NCBI GenBank assembly: GCA_016192145.1
Contig: JACPUT010000006.1
Coordinates: 124,001-188,000 of the forward strand
Direction: 5' to 3'
DNA length: 64,000 nucleotides
DNA from: Acidobacteriota bacterium
GTDB taxonomy: Bacteria; Acidobacteriota; Holophagae; Holophagales; Holophagaceae
The notes under the pieces are model-generated. The model saw nothing but the letters and a program-made list of their open reading frames with translations. It was not told the DNA's origin and did not search any database. Of the stretch, positions 4,188 through 61,639 are shown piece after piece (positions within the stretch are counted from its first letter, which is position 1; the number at the start of each line of letters is the position of its first letter). A program made the position numbers and the translations under genes.

Positions 4188-4212
4188 GGCGCACCGCCCG
4201 GGGGGCTCAACC

Positions 4213-4380
4213 CGGATCGTGCAGTTGGGTTTGCATGGAGTGGGCTATGGGCTATTGGCTCTAGGCTCTTGCAGGTTCCGGCCTTCCATTGGTCCGGCCA
4301 ATGGTGGATCGACCGGAATTGCCGTGCCCAGCTGGAGCCTAGAGCCGAGAGCCCAGAGCCAATCGCACGATCCGGGCTCA
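4213..4380. repeat. 168-bp inverted-repeat element, copy A
   Basis: An intergenic element with inverted ends CCCGGATCGTGC (4211-4222) and GCACGATCCGGG (4365-4376). Inside are arms built of degenerate heptamers: GGCTATG/GGCTATT/GGCTCTA on the left and GAGCCTA/GAGCCGA/GAGCCCA on the right. They can pair into a long stem. A same-length copy with most bases identical lies at 11208-11375. The right edge overlaps the TGA stop of mtnP. It contains no transposase. Confidence 0.85.
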
Positions 4381-5241
4381 ATACCCGTAGCGCTCCACCA
4401 GGAGCCCCAGCCTCTCCGCCGTGGCGGCGGGCACGTGGTCGGGCGGGGTCATCAGGGCGAACCGCAGGGCATTCCGGGCGGGGTCATCGGCGGGGGCGCC
4501 CCCCGCCAGATCCGCCACGACCGCCCGAAGCAGGGCCTGGGCCTTGCCCACGTTGGCGGCCATCACGGCCAGCACGTCGTGGGTCTCCACGGCCTCTTCA
4601 TCCTTCCAGGCGTCGAAGTCGGTGACGAGGGCGATGCAGGCCCACACCAGCTCGGCTTCGCGGGCGAGCTTGGCTTCCGTGGCCTGGGTCATGCCGATGA
4701 GATCGGCACCCCAGGATTGGTGGAGGCGGCTCTCGGCCCGGGTGGAGAACTGGGGGCCCTCCATGTTCACGTAAGTGCCCACCTCCGGCAGCTCCAGGCC
4801 CAGGCGGGCCGCGGCCGCGGATAGCTTCCCCCGCAGCCAGACCGAGGTCGGTTCCGCGAAGCCCACGTGGGCCACGAGGCCCTGGCCGAAGAAGGTGCTC
4901 TCCCGCCGGTGGGTCTTGTCCATGAATTGGGTGGGCAGGCAGAGGGCCCCCGGGTGCAGGTGGCCTTGCAGGCTGCCCACGGCGGAAACGGACAGCAGGA
5001 TCTCCACGCCGGCGGCCTTCATGGCCCAGACGTTGGCGCGGTAGTTCACTTCCGAGGGCGTGAAGCGGTGCCCCTCCCCGTGGCGGGGCAGGAAGGCCAC
5101 GGGCACGCCCTCCAGGGTGCCGAGCACCACGGGGCCGCTGGGATCGCCGAAAGGAGTTGGGATGCTCCGGCGCTCCGTCACCACCACGCCGGGCATGCCA
5201 TAGAGCCCGCTGCCGCCAAGGATGCCGATGGGTGCCGTCAT
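4378..5241 (-). CDS. mtnP: S-methyl-5'-thioadenosine phosphorylase
   Basis: A 287-residue purine-nucleoside-phosphorylase-family enzyme that cleaves methylthioadenosine with phosphate to adenine and 5-methylthioribose-1-phosphate, feeding methionine salvage. Visible motifs are the phosphate loop GGSGLYG near residue 9, PRHGEGH at 52-58, the sugar-binding MEGPQFSTRAES at 160-171, and the base-specificity segment TDFDAW at 207-212. The aspartates there (rather than Asn) mark the 6-aminopurine type. No other methionine-salvage genes are adjacent. The stop codon forms the edge of the repeat element. Confidence 0.93.
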   Translation of the reverse strand: MTAPIGILGGSGLYGMPGVVVTERRSIPTPFGDPSGPVVLGTLEGVPVAFLPRHGEGHRFTPSEVNYRANVWAMKAAGVEILLSVSAVGSLQGHLHPGALCLPTQFMDKTHRRESTFFGQGLVAHVGFAEPTSVWLRGKLSAAAARLGLELPEVGTYVNMEGPQFSTRAESRLHQSWGADLIGMTQATEAKLAREAELVWACIALVTDFDAWKDEEAVETHDVLAVMAANVGKAQALLRAVVADLAGGAPADDPARNALRFALMTPPDHVPAATAERLGLLVERYGY

Positions 5242-5253
5242 GAAGGACCTCGG

Positions 5254-5340
5254 AACGCGAAGAGCGCGAAGAAAGGCGCGAAGGGCGCGAATCCATTCTG
5301 GTTCATTCGCGGCCTTCGCTCCATTCGCGTTATTCGCGAT
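5254..5340. repeat. Hairpin element with GCGAA-type tandem arms
   Basis: Between mtnP and the DUF3187 gene. The left arm repeats units of the type GCGCGAAG four times; the right arm is the complementary TTCGCG-type series (5304-5340). The arms can pair around a short loop. The same unit type recurs at 17549-17643 and 61579-61639. Confidence 0.75.
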
Positions 5341-5343
5341 CCC

Positions 5344-6426
5344 CTAGAACCGCGTGGTGACGCCCACCGCGAAGGCCATGTCGGCCGTGTTCTCGTTGTG
5401 GGAGATGTTGTTCACGTAGCGGAAGGTGGCGAAGGTGCGGGGAGACCAGAACCAGTGCAGGCCCAGATCATGGGTGAAGGAGGGGCGGTGGAAAGTGGCG
5501 CCCTCGATGCGGCGCGCGAAGCCGCTGAGCACCTGGAGCTGAAGGTAGGGCTGCAGCACCTTCTTCGTCCGCCAGCGCAGGCCCAGGTGGCCGGCCAGCT
5601 CATCTCGGTAGCCGATCTGCCCGTAGGCGGGGCTGCCTGCGGCGCGGTGGGTGTAGGCGCCGCCAAAGGTCAGCTGATGCCCCCGGGCGAAATCCCACCA
5701 GCCGCTCAGGCCCACCTGCGTATCCCAGCCACTTTGGTAGACGTTGTAGGTGCGGGTGAGCGGGGGCTTCACGGAGGCCGTCAGGCTGAGGCCGCCCTGG
5801 GAACCCGAGAAGAGCTGATGCACGAGGCCCAACACGGGATCCTGGGGCTTCCGCTTGATGGGATCGTCGGAAAAAAAGGTCACCTGGCCCTGCGACATCA
5901 TGGCCACCACGAGCTGGTTGCGGGCCACGAGGTCCCGGCCCCACTGACGGAAGCCGAGGCCGGCATGGAAGCGCTCGATGGTGGAGTCCAGGGCGCCCCC
6001 CGTGTGGCTCACCCAGGCCCATTGGAGGAAGGCATCCGTTCGGGCTCCCAGGCCCGTGCGGACCTCCAGGGTGGTGCGGAGGATCTCCTCGTCGAACCAG
6101 AAGGCGAAGGGGAGCTGGGTGTAATCGCCGGCATGCTGGGTCCAGTAGGCGCGGGTGAGCTGGATGCGCCCCTGGAGATCGCGGGGGGGGCCGTTCTTGA
6201 TGGCGTCGCTGAACTCGAAGACGTTGCCGCGGGCGCTGTGGAGCGCCACCTGCCAGCGCCCGGTGCCCAGCGGCTTGGGGGACAGGGGTTGGTAGGTGAG
6301 GGGGACCAGTTGCAGCGGGAAGAGCTCCCGGGTGGGGGCCACGCCGGGGTCGAGTTCCGGGGCCTCCTGGGCGCGGAGGGACAAACCGAGGGCGAGCATG
6401 GGGATGAACCGTAGGCCGGGGTGCAT
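5344..6426 (-). CDS. DUF3187-type outer-membrane protein
   Basis: A 360-residue protein with a signal peptide ending near LSLRAQ (residues 12-20). The body has alternating hydrophobic and polar strands and ends in an aromatic (VTTRF), as expected for an outer-membrane beta-barrel. The spacing of conserved stretches (GRWQVALHSARGN, the NVYQSGWDTQVG region) matches what I recognise as DUF3187, a barrel family of unknown function. A hairpin element separates it from mtnP downstream. The location is well supported by sequence; the family name is moderately supported and the function is unknown. Confidence 0.75.
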   Translation of the reverse strand: MHPGLRFIPMLALGLSLRAQEAPELDPGVAPTRELFPLQLVPLTYQPLSPKPLGTGRWQVALHSARGNVFEFSDAIKNGPPRDLQGRIQLTRAYWTQHAGDYTQLPFAFWFDEEILRTTLEVRTGLGARTDAFLQWAWVSHTGGALDSTIERFHAGLGFRQWGRDLVARNQLVVAMMSQGQVTFFSDDPIKRKPQDPVLGLVHQLFSGSQGGLSLTASVKPPLTRTYNVYQSGWDTQVGLSGWWDFARGHQLTFGGAYTHRAAGSPAYGQIGYRDELAGHLGLRWRTKKVLQPYLQLQVLSGFARRIEGATFHRPSFTHDLGLHWFWSPRTFATFRYVNNISHNENTADMAFAVGVTTRF

Positions 6427-6446
6427 CCCGATAGTTTAGAGGGAGC

Positions 6447-10490
<4,044 letters not shown>

Positions 10491-10512
10491 TGATTGATTC
10501 TACGGCTGGAAC

Positions 10513-11376
10513 CTAGGGGGAAGCCCCCGCGCCCGAACGATTCCGCAGATCGAGGCCCCACACATCCTGCACCCTGGTGATTTCCCCCGGGGTGAGATCC
10601 AGGGCCGCGGCGAATCCAGGGCCATCCAGGACGACGGAGTGGTATTCGCCTTCTTCACCGCAGGCGTCGCAGCCGTGGGCCTCGATGGCCCCCACGAGGG
10701 CCGCGTCGAGGGTGCGCCCCAGGAACGCCATGGGGAGCCGCCCCTCCCGCACGGCCACGAGGCAGGCCTTGAAGCCCTCGCGGAGCAACTCATCCACGAG
10801 CTTCCGGCGGGGCTCCAGCCAGAGGGGCAGGAGGGGGGTGAGACCCGCGGCGGCGCAGACCTTCTCCTCCCACTCCCGGTGGGGCTGGAGATCGATGTCG
10901 CCGAAGACGGCGGCCTCCGCGCCCAGGGCCTTGGCCTCCCCCAGCTTCTGGATGAAGACGGCCTCGTAGCCCTCCCAGGTGGCGTGGCCCTGGATCAGGG
11001 GCAGCCCCAGGGCTCTCGCCTGTTCGGCGAGGATCTCCGGGCGCAGGCCGTGGCTCCGGCTGCGCGCCCCGTCCTCCTTGAACATGGTCAGCAGGGCCAC
11101 GGGTCGCAGATCCGCCTTCACGGCGCGGTGGAAGGCGAGGGCGCTGTCCTTGCCGCCGCTCCAGGAGCAGATGAAGGGGGTGCCGGGAGCTGGGGTCGGA
11201 CTCGACTCGGATCGTGCAGTTGGGTTTGTATGGAGTGGGCTTTGGGCTTTCGGCTCTAGGCTCTTGCCGATTCCGGTTTTGCATTGGCCCGTCCGATGGT
11301 GAATTGAACGGAAAGGTCGTGCCCAGCTAGAGGCTAGAGCCGAAAGCCCAGAGCCAATCGCACGATCAGGGCTCAT
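10513..11376 (-). CDS. Dph6-like PP-loop ATPase (diphthine-ammonia ligase family), N-terminus altered by repeat
   Basis: The conserved part begins near 11178 with FICSWSGGKDSALAF, the SGGKDS PP-loop that activates a substrate by adenylation. Later motifs include the GDIDLQPHREWEEKVC segment and CGEEGEYHS, typical of the diphthine-ammonia ligase family (COG2102). Bacteria lack diphthamide, so the substrate is unknown. No ATG, GTG or TTG lies just before the PP-loop. The only start in frame is the ATG at 11376, which overlaps the cobU stop as ATGA and would translate through the 168-bp repeat, adding about 66 residues. Either the repeat created a new N-terminus or the gene is damaged. It is the last gene of the B12 operon. 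Confidence 0.75.
   Translation of the reverse strand: MSPDRAIGSGLSALASSWARPFRSIHHRTGQCKTGIGKSLEPKAQSPLHTNPTARSESSPTPAPGTPFICSWSGGKDSALAFHRAVKADLRPVALLTMFKEDGARSRSHGLRPEILAEQARALGLPLIQGHATWEGYEAVFIQKLGEAKALGAEAAVFGDIDLQPHREWEEKVCAAAGLTPLLPLWLEPRRKLVDELLREGFKACLVAVREGRLPMAFLGRTLDAALVGAIEAHGCDACGEEGEYHSVVLDGPGFAAALDLTPGEITRVQDVWGLDLRNRSGAGASP
11208..11375. repeat. 168-bp inverted-repeat element, copy B
   Basis: The second copy of the element at 4213-4380, same orientation and same length. The left end CGGATCGTGCAGTTGGGTTT is identical; the right end differs by a base (GATCAGGG against GATCCGGG). The heptameric arms are conserved (GGCTCTA and GAGCCGA types). Its right edge overlaps the TGA of cobU. 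On the minus strand it is an open frame continuing into the Dph6-like gene. Confidence 0.85.
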
Positions 11377-11888
11377 TTCAACCTCACCGCGCAGCCGGCC
11401 ACCATCAGGAACGCCTCTTCCGAAGCCGCGGCCGTGGCCTGTCCCAGCCAGCCCGCGAGGTCGCGCCAACGCCGCAGCACGGGGCTCTCGGGCACGGGGC
11501 TCCAGCCTACCTCGTTGCCGACGATCACCACGGGGTACGGCGCCTCCCGCAGGGCGGCGAGGATGGCCTGCCATTCGGCGAGGATCGCGGTGTCCTGCCA
11601 ATCCAGGCGCGCCGAGAGCCAGAGGGTCTGGCAGTCGAAGAGGAGGCCCGAGGGCGGGGGATTCACTTTGGCGAGGGCGCCGACCACGTCCTCCGGGGCC
11701 TCCAGGGTGCGCCAGGCCGGGCGCTCGGCGCGGTGCCGGGCCACGCGCGCCAGCATTTCCGGATCGGCGCCCTGGGGGTTGAAGGTGGCGAGCACGACGA
11801 CGCGATCCCCGAAGGTGGCGGCCAGCTCCACGGCGCGTCGGCTCTTGCCGCTGCGCACGGGGCCCGTGAGGTAGGTGATCCGCCCCAT
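11373..11888 (-). CDS. cobU: Adenosylcobinamide kinase / adenosylcobinamide-phosphate guanylyltransferase
   Basis: A 171-residue CobU/CobP. It phosphorylates adenosylcobinamide and transfers GMP to give adenosylcobinamide-GDP, the step before joining to the lower ligand. Visible are the P-loop LTGPVRSGKSRRA (residues 7-19), the DCQTLWLSARL segment, and VGNEVGWSPVPES followed by RRWRDLAGWLGQ, the guanylylation region. The start overlaps the cobO stop by one base (TGATG), so translation is coupled. The stop overlaps the next start and coincides with the edge of the repeat element. Confidence 0.92.
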   Translation of the reverse strand: MGRITYLTGPVRSGKSRRAVELAATFGDRVVVLATFNPQGADPEMLARVARHRAERPAWRTLEAPEDVVGALAKVNPPPSGLLFDCQTLWLSARLDWQDTAILAEWQAILAALREAPYPVVIVGNEVGWSPVPESPVLRRWRDLAGWLGQATAAASEEAFLMVAGCAVRLK

Positions 11889-13310: not shown

Positions 13311-13418
13311 ACGCAGAGGCGCGGAGGCGCAGAGACGCAGAGGGATTTGGAGGGAGCTGGGTCCAGTCCCGACACCGGATGCCTTCTCTGCGCCTCTGCG
13401 TCTCTGCGCCTCTGCGTT
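13311..13418. repeat. Hairpin element with CGCAGAG-type tandem arms
   Basis: The left arm (13311-13344) repeats octamers of the type GCGCAGAG/ACGCAGAG. The right arm (about 13384-13418) is the complementary CTCTGCGT/CTCTGCGC series. The arms can pair around a loop of about 40 nt. The element lies in the btuC-btuD gap. Confidence 0.8.
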
Positions 13419-17248: not shown

Positions 17249-17324
17249 CATGCCTCCACGCATGAGCCGGAGCGCGGGCGGATGAGCCCCGAGGGGGGCG
17301 CACCGCCCGCTCCCACGGCGGGGG

Positions 17325-17500
17325 TCAAGGTCCTGGACCGGTCTCCGGACTCGCACGCGACAAGGACCGTTGGATCCTCCCGAACCTTCCCGGTTTCCCA
17401 GTGGTTCGGCTTGCGGTCTCACCCTTTCGGATGGTGCACACCGTTGCGGGGCAGTGCCGGATTCCCACCGGCTTCCCGAGCATCACAGGACGCGATGTCA
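17325..17500 (-). promoter_or_regulatory. Cobalamin riboswitch upstream of btuB
   Basis: Read on the minus strand, the leader carries the recognisable B12 element: AAGCCGGTGGGAATCCGGC, then CACTGCCCCGCAACGG (B12 box region, near 17440-17457), then GAGTCCGGAGACC (17341-17353). These match the conserved core and 3' part of cobalamin riboswitches. It would lower btuB and downstream operon expression when adenosylcobalamin is plentiful. Exact 5' and 3' ends are estimates. Confidence 0.9.
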
Positions 17501-17548
17501 GAACTCCCAGGGGAACATGGGGTGGGGCTCCTTGCAAGGGAAAGCCTG

Positions 17549-17643
17549 GAACGCGAAGAGCGCGAAGAAAAGCGCCAAGAGCGCCAAGGAACCCCCAGCA
17601 TGGCTTCGCGCCCTTCGCGCTTATCTTCGCGCTCTTTGCGTTC
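17549..17643. repeat. Hairpin element with GCGAAG-type tandem arms
   Basis: The left arm from 17549 repeats GCGCGAAG/GCGCCAAG-type units. The right arm (to 17643) repeats the complementary TTCGCGC/TTTGCGT units; the outer GAACGC/GCGTTC ends pair exactly. It lies downstream of the cobC-like gene and upstream of the B12 riboswitch. Confidence 0.8.
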
Positions 17644-20162: not shown

Positions 20163-20591
20163 ATGGCTCAACGCGTGGCACTCCAACCCAGCCCGAAGTT
20201 GCAATCCCTGTTGAAGGAATTTCAGCAGATCGCGGGCATGGCGGGTTTCCTGAATCACGGGTTCGACCCACCGCAGCTGCGCCTGCAGTTCACGCTCTAC
20301 GGTCGCCTTCGCGTGGAGGATGAAGCCCAGGCGCTCCTCCTCCAGCCGCCCCTGCAAGCCTGGGCGGAGCAGCTGGGGGAGCGCCTTCGCGAAGAGAGCA
20401 GCGGAGGGGTGCTGCAGCCCCAGATCATGATGGGCCCCCCCCAACCCTTTCCAGGAGGCGGCTTCGTCGTGGTGGCCACCCTGACCTTCGCCACCAAGGT
20501 CACCGACAGCGGGTACTTCAAAGTGAAGACGGCGGTGTTGGCTGCATACCAGGAAGCCGTACGCCTCCGGGAAACCGGGCTGCCGGGTTAG
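20163..20591 (+). CDS. Hypothetical protein, 142 residues
   Basis: I do not recognise this protein. The start at 20163 is used because the frame further upstream is antisense to cobT. It lacks a signal peptide and membrane segments. The middle is Gln/Leu-rich (LLLQPPLQAWAEQLGERL), with a Pro/Gly turn (MMGPPQPFPGGGF) and a beta-like segment FVVVATLTFATKV. It is divergent from cobT and its stop adjoins a hairpin element. Coding is likely from normal composition and an open frame; the function is unknown. Confidence 0.6.
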   Translation: MAQRVALQPSPKLQSLLKEFQQIAGMAGFLNHGFDPPQLRLQFTLYGRLRVEDEAQALLLQPPLQAWAEQLGERLREESSGGVLQPQIMMGPPQPFPGGGFVVVATLTFATKVTDSGYFKVKTAVLAAYQEAVRLRETGLPG

Positions 20592-20751
20592 ACCGGAGAC
20601 TGGAGACCGGAGACTGGAGACTGGAGACTGGAGGCTCGAGGCTGGAGGCTGGATATCGTGTACGGGCGCAAGGCGCCCGCAGCTTTGACTTCCAGTGCGG
20701 GGCGGAGCCCGGCCTCGCATCGGACCTCCAGTCTCCAGCCTCCAGTCTCCG
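20592..20751. repeat. Hairpin element with GACTGGA-type heptamer arms
   Basis: The left arm (20592-20652) is a run of about eight heptamers GACTGGA/GACCGGA/GGCTGGA. The right arm (20725-20751) is the complementary TCCAGTC/TCCAGCC series. About 70 nt of non-repeat sequence lie between. It fills the gap between two convergent genes. Confidence 0.8.
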
Positions 20752-59884: not shown

Positions 59885-59962
59885 AGCCACGAAGAGACAC
59901 GAAGGAACACGAAGAAAACCACATCGTGTTCTATTCGTGTCCCTTCGTGTGACTTCGTGGCT
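59885..59962. repeat. Hairpin element with CACGAAG-type tandem arms
   Basis: The left arm repeats CCACGAAG/ACACGAAG/ACACGAAG; the right arm repeats CGTGT-CCCTTCGTGT-CTTCGTGG. The outer AGCCACGAAG/CTTCGTGGCT ends pair exactly. It occupies the argS-pyrG gap. A single arm of the same family is at 18995-19026. Confidence 0.85.
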
Positions 59963-61578: not shown

Positions 61579-61639
61579 AACCGCGAATGTCGCGAATTTT
61601 CGCGAATGGGTTTAGCGTTCATTCGCGCCATTCGCGGTT
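61579..61639. repeat. Hairpin element with CGCGAAT-type tandem arms
   Basis: Left arm AACCGCGAAT/GTCGCGAAT/TTCGCGAAT; right arm ATTCGCGCC/ATTCGCGGTT. The ends AACCGCGAAT and ATTCGCGGTT pair exactly. It lies in the 75-bp pyrG-tkt gap and ends 13 bp before the tkt start. Confidence 0.85.

What the first reader, a model, noticed from the sequence alone, without database searches (positions are those of the whole stretch)
4213..11375. Two 168-bp copies of a terminally inverted repeat, each ending at a gene's TGA stop
Copies at 4213-4380 and 11208-11375 have the same length and mostly identical sequence, with inverted ends around CGGATCGTGC. In both, the right edge forms the stop codon (TGAGCCC on the minus strand) of a minus-strand gene: mtnP in one, cobU in the other. 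The internal arms are degenerate heptamers. This could be a MITE-like or REP-like mobile element that inserts at gene 3' ends, or a conserved 3' RNA structure spread by recombination. No transposase is visible in the window.
Basis: seen in the sequence. Interest (0 to 1): 0.7.

Follow-up and report, generated by a model that had tools for sequence, protein, structure and literature searches.

The report
Heptamer-armed palindromes linked to IVP genes
The two repeats are members of a dispersed family of DNA palindromes whose arms are tandem 7-base units; the same kind of arms frames small ring-protein (IVP/S23) genes in many bacterial phyla, so these repeats look like gene-less copies of a little-recognised class of mobile element that settles at the ends of genes.

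Summary
The two 168-bp copies are real, but they are two of more than 50 in this genome. Each is a palindrome: [GGCTNTN]n, core, [NANAGCC]n. Copies hug stop codons; 37 of 51 have an arm edge within 20 bp of one. There is no Y1/RAYT transposase. A sister species lacks the cobU copy.

The key result came from outside the window. In relatives with arms about 470 bp apart, the core encodes a PF05635 protein (23S rRNA intervening-sequence protein, IVP/S23, a four-helix bundle). Tested automatically, 38 of 54 IVP genes, from several phyla, are framed by inverted tandem arrays (35 of unit 7, 3 of unit 8), against 0 of 482 control windows. Different IVPs have different heptamers, and these track the IVP tree. 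This genome's two IVPs have GTCCTTR and GGCTGGA arms. Short palindromes sharing one core motif carry exactly those two arm types plus GGCTCTN. An Azospirillum 23S rRNA IVS has, by eye, the same anatomy.

I conclude that the finding consists of IVP-less (MITE-like) members of an IVP element class. That the IVP ring protein binds the heptamers and drives spread is inferred, not shown.

The parts
4211..4376 (.). Element 1, full window-type (type B) palindrome, CCCGGATCGTGC...GCACGATCCGGG
   Evidence: flanked by direct repeat CTCAA at 4206-4210 and 4377-4381
4243..4269 (+). left arm of element 1, four GGCTNT(N) heptamers
4334..4360 (-). right arm of element 1, heptamers on the minus strand
4206..4210 (.). 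left flank CTCAA, identical to right flank 4377-4381 (possible 5-bp target duplication, YTNAR)
4378..5241 (-). mtnP; its TGA stop (4378-4380) lies in the flanking CTCAA
3240..4187 (+). nitrilase-like gene, convergent with mtnP, ending just before element 1
11206..11371 (.). Element 2, full window-type palindrome
   Evidence: not seen at the matching junction of sister species G001 (L231)
11238..11264 (+). left arm of element 2, four heptamers
11329..11355 (-). right arm of element 2, four heptamers (one with a mismatch)
11373..11888 (-). cobU; stop TGA 11373-11375 at the element edge
10513..11376 (-). DUF71-type ATP-binding gene downstream of cobU; its frame is open through element 2 back to an ATG (11376-11374) overlapping the cobU stop (ATGA)
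20590..20750 (.). third short palindrome in the window, with GGCTGGA/GACTGGA arms, the arm type of this genome's IVP at G000:C1:468701-469009

Best explanation
The two repeats are non-autonomous (gene-less, MITE-like) members of a class of dispersed element whose full form is: inverted array of tandem heptamers, an IVP/S23 gene (PF05635, about 110-135 aa four-helix bundle), inverted array of the same heptamer. When such an element inserts in 23S rRNA it is known as an intervening sequence (IVS). Proposed mechanism: the element is transcribed and folds into one long hairpin. IVP, a five-membered ring in solved relatives, reads the heptamer arrays as sequence (one unit per subunit is my guess) and, with host enzymes or a reverse transcriptase in trans, copies full and IVP-deleted forms into new sites. 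Survivors sit just downstream of stop codons or between genes, where a hairpin that RNase III can process does little harm. Shown here: copy number, anatomy, 3'-end bias, absence from a sister species, framing of IVP genes by private heptamers across phyla, heptamer-IVP co-variation, and shared core and arms between short palindromes and this genome's IVP elements. Read by eye only: the same anatomy in one rRNA IVS. Inferred: IVP binding to the arms, IVP as the factor for spread, and the copying route.
For: At least 51 arm-bearing loci in this genome. In the loci held, 312 of 365 arrays are paired as arm-core-arm and 1 in the opposite sense (most cross-phylum loci were selected for being paired). 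IVP genes framed by inverted tandem arms: 38 of 54 against 0 of 482 control windows, unit 7 in 35. Independent set of 12 plasmid IVPs: 7 pass the same test (6 of unit 7, 1 of unit 8). 19 of 20 cross-phylum heptamer-rich genomes hold PF05635, against 0 of 14 control genomes. Heptamer similarity follows IVP identity: Mantel r = 0.37, p = 0.0002; the RGCTNTN label needs 8 changes on the IVP tree against 13.8 shuffled, 0 of 500. This genome's IVPs have GTCCTTR and GGCTGGA arms; 15 fetched short palindromes with the CGACCCA..TGGGTCG core carry GTCCTTR (3), GGCTGGA (5) or GGCTCTN (7) arms. The subterminal TGGGTCGGCGCCAGC of the GTCCTTR IVP element recurs beside short-palindrome arms. An IVP in 23S rRNA has heptamer-type arms by eye. 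Family genomes with an RGCTNTN-armed IVP: 7 of 9 have 10 or more triple hits, against 13 of 68 others, p = 0.0008. The Coxiella IVS has tandem GACAGAT heptamers before S23p and terminal inverted repeats (PMC4990558). Model of this genome's IVP (pLDDT 92) matches S23 proteins 2GSC and 2RLD, five chains each, and more weakly DGR Avd.
Against: No IVP with GGCTCTN arms was found in this assembly, so the direct parent of the window subfamily is missing. Several heptamer-rich relatives (G083, G075, G043) have no PF05635 hit. IVP has no known nuclease or transferase activity. About 30% of IVP loci fail the strict arm test; a few distant family members show no arms, and at least one (L338) has direct, not inverted, arrays. 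The window subfamily's outer ends and 5-bp flank duplications could instead reflect a separate DNA transposase.
Confidence: 0.7

Rival explanations
1. The window subfamily is an ordinary MITE moved by a DNA transposase that recognises CCCGGATCGTGC ends and duplicates a 5-bp YTNAR target; the heptamers and IVP are incidental.
For: Ten full copies share these ends. Flanks match 36 of 50 bases with 3 perfect 5-bp duplications; shuffling flanks among copies reaches this in 0.09% (sum) and 2% (perfect). YTNAR contains stop trinucleotides, which would give the stop-codon effect for free.
Against: The other ~40 loci have the arms but mostly not these ends. No Y1 transposase. No element with these ends around a longer body appeared in the genome searches; DDE families were not searched. 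Does not explain heptamer arms around IVP genes across phyla.
Confidence: 0.15
2. The heptamer palindromes are old intergenic repeats born by slippage and kept as 3'-end RNA structures (terminators, mRNA stabilisers); IVP genes merely home into them.
For: Heptameric repeats are over-represented in bacteria and occur as convergent pairs in Xanthomonas (PMC4692102). Strong 3'-end bias here and across phyla. Very stable hairpin.
Against: Variable heptamer positions do not clearly covary (position 5: 46% identical against 49% shuffled; position 7: 43% against 34%), and on the transcribed strand C-A mismatches (16) are not fewer than U-G wobbles (13), although that tally used the earlier gene calls. 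Arms appear to travel with IVP into 23S rRNA. The heptamer follows IVP phylogeny. Nearest relatives lack the family.
Confidence: 0.1
3. REP/RAYT system.
For: Short palindromes at gene 3' ends.
Against: No Y1_Tnp in the genome while the same search finds it in 5 control genomes; arms are tandem heptamers.
Confidence: 0.03

Closest known systems
23S rRNA intervening sequences (IVS) with S23/IVP ORF (Leptospira, Coxiella)
   Same: Same protein family (PF05635); ORF inside an element with terminal inverted repeats; the Coxiella IVS has tandem GACAGAT heptamers before the ORF; mobility has been proposed but not shown (PMC4990558)
   Different: Here the elements are genome-wide and intergenic, mostly lack the ORF, and are bounded by inverted tandem-heptamer arrays that differ from one IVP lineage to another
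Intergenic heptameric repeats: GGGAATC in Xanthomonas, GGGGAYT in Nostoc, TAACTGA in Beggiatoaceae
   Same: Intergenic, tandem, unit of 7; in Xanthomonas 70-75 convergent inverted pairs per genome (PMC4692102)
   Different: Other heptamers; described as G-quadruplex, SSR or regulatory repeats; the two papers read contain no mention of S23 (PMC4692102, PMC4679880)
MITEs
   Same: Short, palindromic, multi-copy, gene-less, intergenic, with candidate target duplications in one subfamily
   Different: The apparent parent encodes a four-helix-bundle protein, not a transposase; arms are tandem heptamer arrays
REP elements and RAYT (Y1 transposase)
   Same: Extragenic palindromes near gene ends
   Different: No Y1_Tnp gene; different anatomy
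Diversity-generating retroelement protein Avd
   Same: Four-helix bundle of similar fold (4DWL, 8UB7/8UBE); homology with PF05635 was noted in PMC10053308
   Different: Avd works with a reverse transcriptase and template/variable repeats; no such partner was identified here

Membership tests
IVP/S23 element (IVS-like) | encodes a PF05635 protein | tested here: not met
   The short window copies encode none (cores 38-70 bp); the genome holds two PF05635 genes elsewhere. Hence 'IVP-less member', not a full element
IVP/S23 element (IVS-like) | IVP gene framed by inverted tandem-heptamer arms (feature proposed here) | tested here: met
   38 of 54 IVP loci against 0 of 482 controls; 7 of 12 plasmid IVPs
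IVP/S23 element (IVS-like) | short copies share arms and subterminal core with the genome's IVP elements | tested here: inconclusive
   Met for type-A copies: GTCCTTR and GGCTGGA arms and TGGGTCGGCGCCAGC shared. For the window's own type-B copies the arms match no IVP found; they join the class through the GGCTCTN arms they share with type-A copies
23S rRNA IVS | lies inside a 23S rRNA gene | tested here: not met
   Window copies are between protein genes; Rfam finds no rRNA there. L348 shows an IVP with heptamer-like arms inside LSU rRNA
MITE | multi-copy, short, inverted ends, no ORF | tested here: met
MITE | target site duplication | tested here: inconclusive
   3 of 10 perfect 5-bp, 36 of 50 matches, shuffle p about 0.001; element ends were set by hand and YTNAR flanks could be partly element sequence
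MITE | parent transposon with matching ends | tested here: inconclusive
   None seen in genome searches with the element and its arms; Y1_Tnp absent; DDE families were not searched
REP/RAYT | Y1_Tnp (PF01797) RAYT gene in the genome | tested here: not met
DGR | RT plus TR/VR repeats | not tested

The most novel reading that the evidence does not exclude
IVP/S23 proteins define a cross-phylum class of mobile element that moves without a transposase of its own: a ring-shaped RNA-binding protein reads tandem heptamers, one per subunit, and spreads hairpin RNAs or their DNA copies to gene ends. This one class would account for rRNA intervening sequences, for many unexplained heptameric intergenic repeats, and for gene-less palindromes, with each lineage changing its protein and its heptamer together.
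Probability: 0.4. Interest if true: 0.95.

Novelty: new variant of a known kind. Interest (0 to 1): 0.85.

Why it matters
Two old puzzles would become one testable question: why heptameric repeats are so common in bacterial intergenic DNA, and what the S23/IVP protein of rRNA intervening sequences is for. A selfish element whose only gene is a small ring protein, without a transposase, would be a new kind of mobility. It also predicts a protein-heptamer code that can be read directly from genomes and tested with purified proteins.

Tried and rejected
RAYT/REP: PF01797 absent. BLAST of the window element in 40 relatives: nothing; only the heptamer pattern reveals the family there. RNA-pairing selection: no clear covariation at the variable heptamer positions and no wobble preference (its strand assignment used the first gene calls). 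The first gene caller chose antisense ORFs in places; it was retrained, so only contexts are used for position statistics. mtnP as an empty-site test: relatives lack the element after mtnP but synteny differs, so it is not counted. Cold-shock protein as heptamer reader (idea from PMC4679880): searched and not followed after the IVP link. Literature searches for a published IVP-heptamer link found only the Coxiella IVS heptamers; subscription papers and bioRxiv were not searchable.

Full report
Observation. Both copies exist as described. Each is a palindrome: outer inverted ends CCCGGATCGTGC, a left arm of tandem GGCTNT(N) heptamers, a core, and a right arm of the reverse complement. The mtnP and cobU stop codons sit exactly at the right edges. 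Folded as RNA, copy 1 reaches -85.5 kcal/mol, z = -8.05.

Copy number and anatomy. The genome (3.8 Mb, 98% complete) has ten near-full copies of the window type and at least 41 further loci with the same arms. The pattern GGCTNTNGGCTNTNGGCTNT has 204 hits, its reversed control none. A second core type, CGACCCA...TGGGTCG, occurs 33 times against 1 for the control. In all loci held, 312 of 365 heptamer arrays are paired as arm-core-arm, 1 in the opposite sense and 52 unpaired; cross-phylum loci were selected for pairing, loci of this genome only in part.

Position. With a gene caller retrained on this genome, 19 of 51 elements lie between convergent genes, 3 between divergent genes (p = 0.0009), 28 between co-directional genes, 1 unclear. 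In the co-directional set the median distance is 13.5 bp to the upstream stop against 59 bp to the downstream start (p = 0.0008), and 37 of 51 have an arm edge within 20 bp of a stop. Across other phyla the co-directional bias holds (7 against 56 bp, 53 of 74 nearer the stop, p = 0.002); convergent and divergent counts there are equal (12 each), though convergent gaps are over-represented relative to their share of intergenic bases (p = 0.009).

Insertion. At the matching locus of the sister species G001 the cobU stop is followed by a spacer of about 40 bp holding the next gene's own start, without an element. In the present genome the next gene's frame runs open through the element to an ATG overlapping the cobU stop. 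The two species differ too much for base-exact borders. For the ten full copies the 5-bp flanks match in 36 of 50 positions and perfectly in 3 (CTCAA, TTGAA, CTGAG; consensus YTNAR); shuffling flanks among copies gives as much in 0.09% and 2%.

Pairing. The variable 5th base of the heptamers does not covary between arms (46% identical against 49% shuffled), the 7th only weakly (43% against 34%), and on the transcribed strand C-A mismatches (16) are not rarer than U-G wobbles (13) (strands there from the first, less accurate gene calls). The heptamer seems to be kept as a sequence unit, not as a perfect helix.

Distribution. BLAST finds nothing in 40 relatives, but RGCTNTN arrays occur in 34 of 77 genomes of the family, patchily (0 to over 300 hits). 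Twenty such genomes hold 13 to 683 array hits each, mostly far above control.

The IVP link. In relatives L064 and L209 the arms are about 470 bp apart, and the L064 insert encodes PF05635, 23S_rRNA_IVP. A family-wide search found PF05635 in 23 of 77 genomes, including two genes in the present one, and their flanks show inverted tandem heptamers with many different sequences. 19 of 20 cross-phylum heptamer-rich genomes have PF05635, 0 of 14 control genomes do. An automated test (same unit length on both sides, consensus inverse-complementary in some rotation) passes for 38 of 54 IVP loci, 35 with unit 7 and 3 with unit 8, and for 0 of 482 displaced or unrelated windows. Twelve plasmid IVPs fetched afterwards pass in 7 cases. 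One of these twelve, in Azospirillum lipoferum, lies inside 23S rRNA and by eye carries GAGGACR-type heptamers on both sides, although it fails the strict test. The Coxiella IVS is published to have tandem GACAGAT heptamers before its S23p ORF, a 28-bp terminal inverted stem and RNase III processing (PMC4990558).

Co-variation of protein and heptamer. Among 44 IVPs with arms (35 automatic, 9 read by eye), heptamer similarity rises with protein identity (Mantel r = 0.37, p = 0.0002), and the RGCTNTN class is clustered on the IVP tree (8 changes against 13.8 shuffled, 0 of 500).

Short palindromes are IVP-less members. This genome's IVPs carry GTCCTTR and GGCTGGA arms. Fifteen fetched short palindromes with the CGACCCA core carry GTCCTTR (3), GGCTGGA (5) or GGCTCTN (7) arms (some read by eye). 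The 3' subterminal TGGGTCGGCGCCAGC of the GTCCTTR IVP element recurs next to arms of short copies. The window holds one GGCTGGA-type copy at 20590-20750. The window's GGCTCTN subfamily has no matching IVP in this assembly; its parent may be lost, divergent or unassembled. In the family, 7 of 9 genomes with an RGCTNTN-armed IVP have at least 10 triple hits, against 13 of 68 others (p = 0.0008); the IVP's own arms add a few hits to such counts.

Protein. The model of this genome's IVP (pLDDT 92) matches XCC0516 (2GSC) and BT_0352 (2RLD), five chains each, then more weakly DGR Avd (4DWL, 8UB7, 8UBE). The pentamer is published for XCC0516 (cited in PMC4990558 and PMC10053308). No catalytic activity is known for this family (my knowledge).

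Mechanism. Best supported: the finding consists of gene-less members of IVP elements. Inferred: the IVP ring reads tandem heptamers in the RNA (or single-stranded DNA) of the element, and this complex, with host enzymes, inserts copies between genes. The bias to stop codons may come from target preference (YTNAR in the window subfamily), from selection against other sites, or both. The anatomy does not tell RNA-mediated from DNA-mediated copying.

Novelty. IVS elements with S23p are known, and heptameric intergenic repeats are known, including convergent pairs in Xanthomonas (PMC4692102). I found no paper joining them, within an open-access library only. I therefore file it as a new variant of a known kind (IVS/S23 elements), with a real chance that it is a separate class of mobile element.

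Noticed in passing
window 5255-5340: Palindrome with ~9-nt units (GCGCGAAGA / TTCGCGNNA) that ends at the stop codon (CTA, minus strand) of the gene 5344-6426.
   Followed up: partly
window 13312-13416, 17552-17633, 59888-59959, 61582-61636: Further inverted tandem-unit palindromes with 8- to 12-nt periods (CGCAGAGG; CGCGAAGAG; CACGAAGAGA; CGCGAATGT), found by a scan with no hits in shuffled windows. They may be a related class with longer units.
   Followed up: partly
window 10513-11376 (minus): The gene after cobU appears to have lost its own start to the insertion; its frame is open through element 2 to an ATG overlapping the cobU stop, so the element may be translated as an N-terminal extension.
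   Followed up: partly
L338, L344, L345: Plasmid IVP genes lie between cas genes (cas6/cas4, cas10/cmr3) in cyanobacteria; PMC3936711 noted 23S_rRNA_IVP genes in cas loci. Insertion of IVP elements between operon genes would explain this.
   Followed up: partly
L338: IVP with long AAAAGCT/AAAAGCC arrays in direct, not inverted, orientation; an exception to the rule.
   Followed up: no
L307, L309, L313, L347: IVP loci whose arrays have unit 8 or 9 instead of 7 (L307: direct 9-mers).
   Followed up: no
window 17318-17517 (minus): Cobalamin riboswitch (Rfam RF00174) upstream of the cob genes.
   Followed up: no
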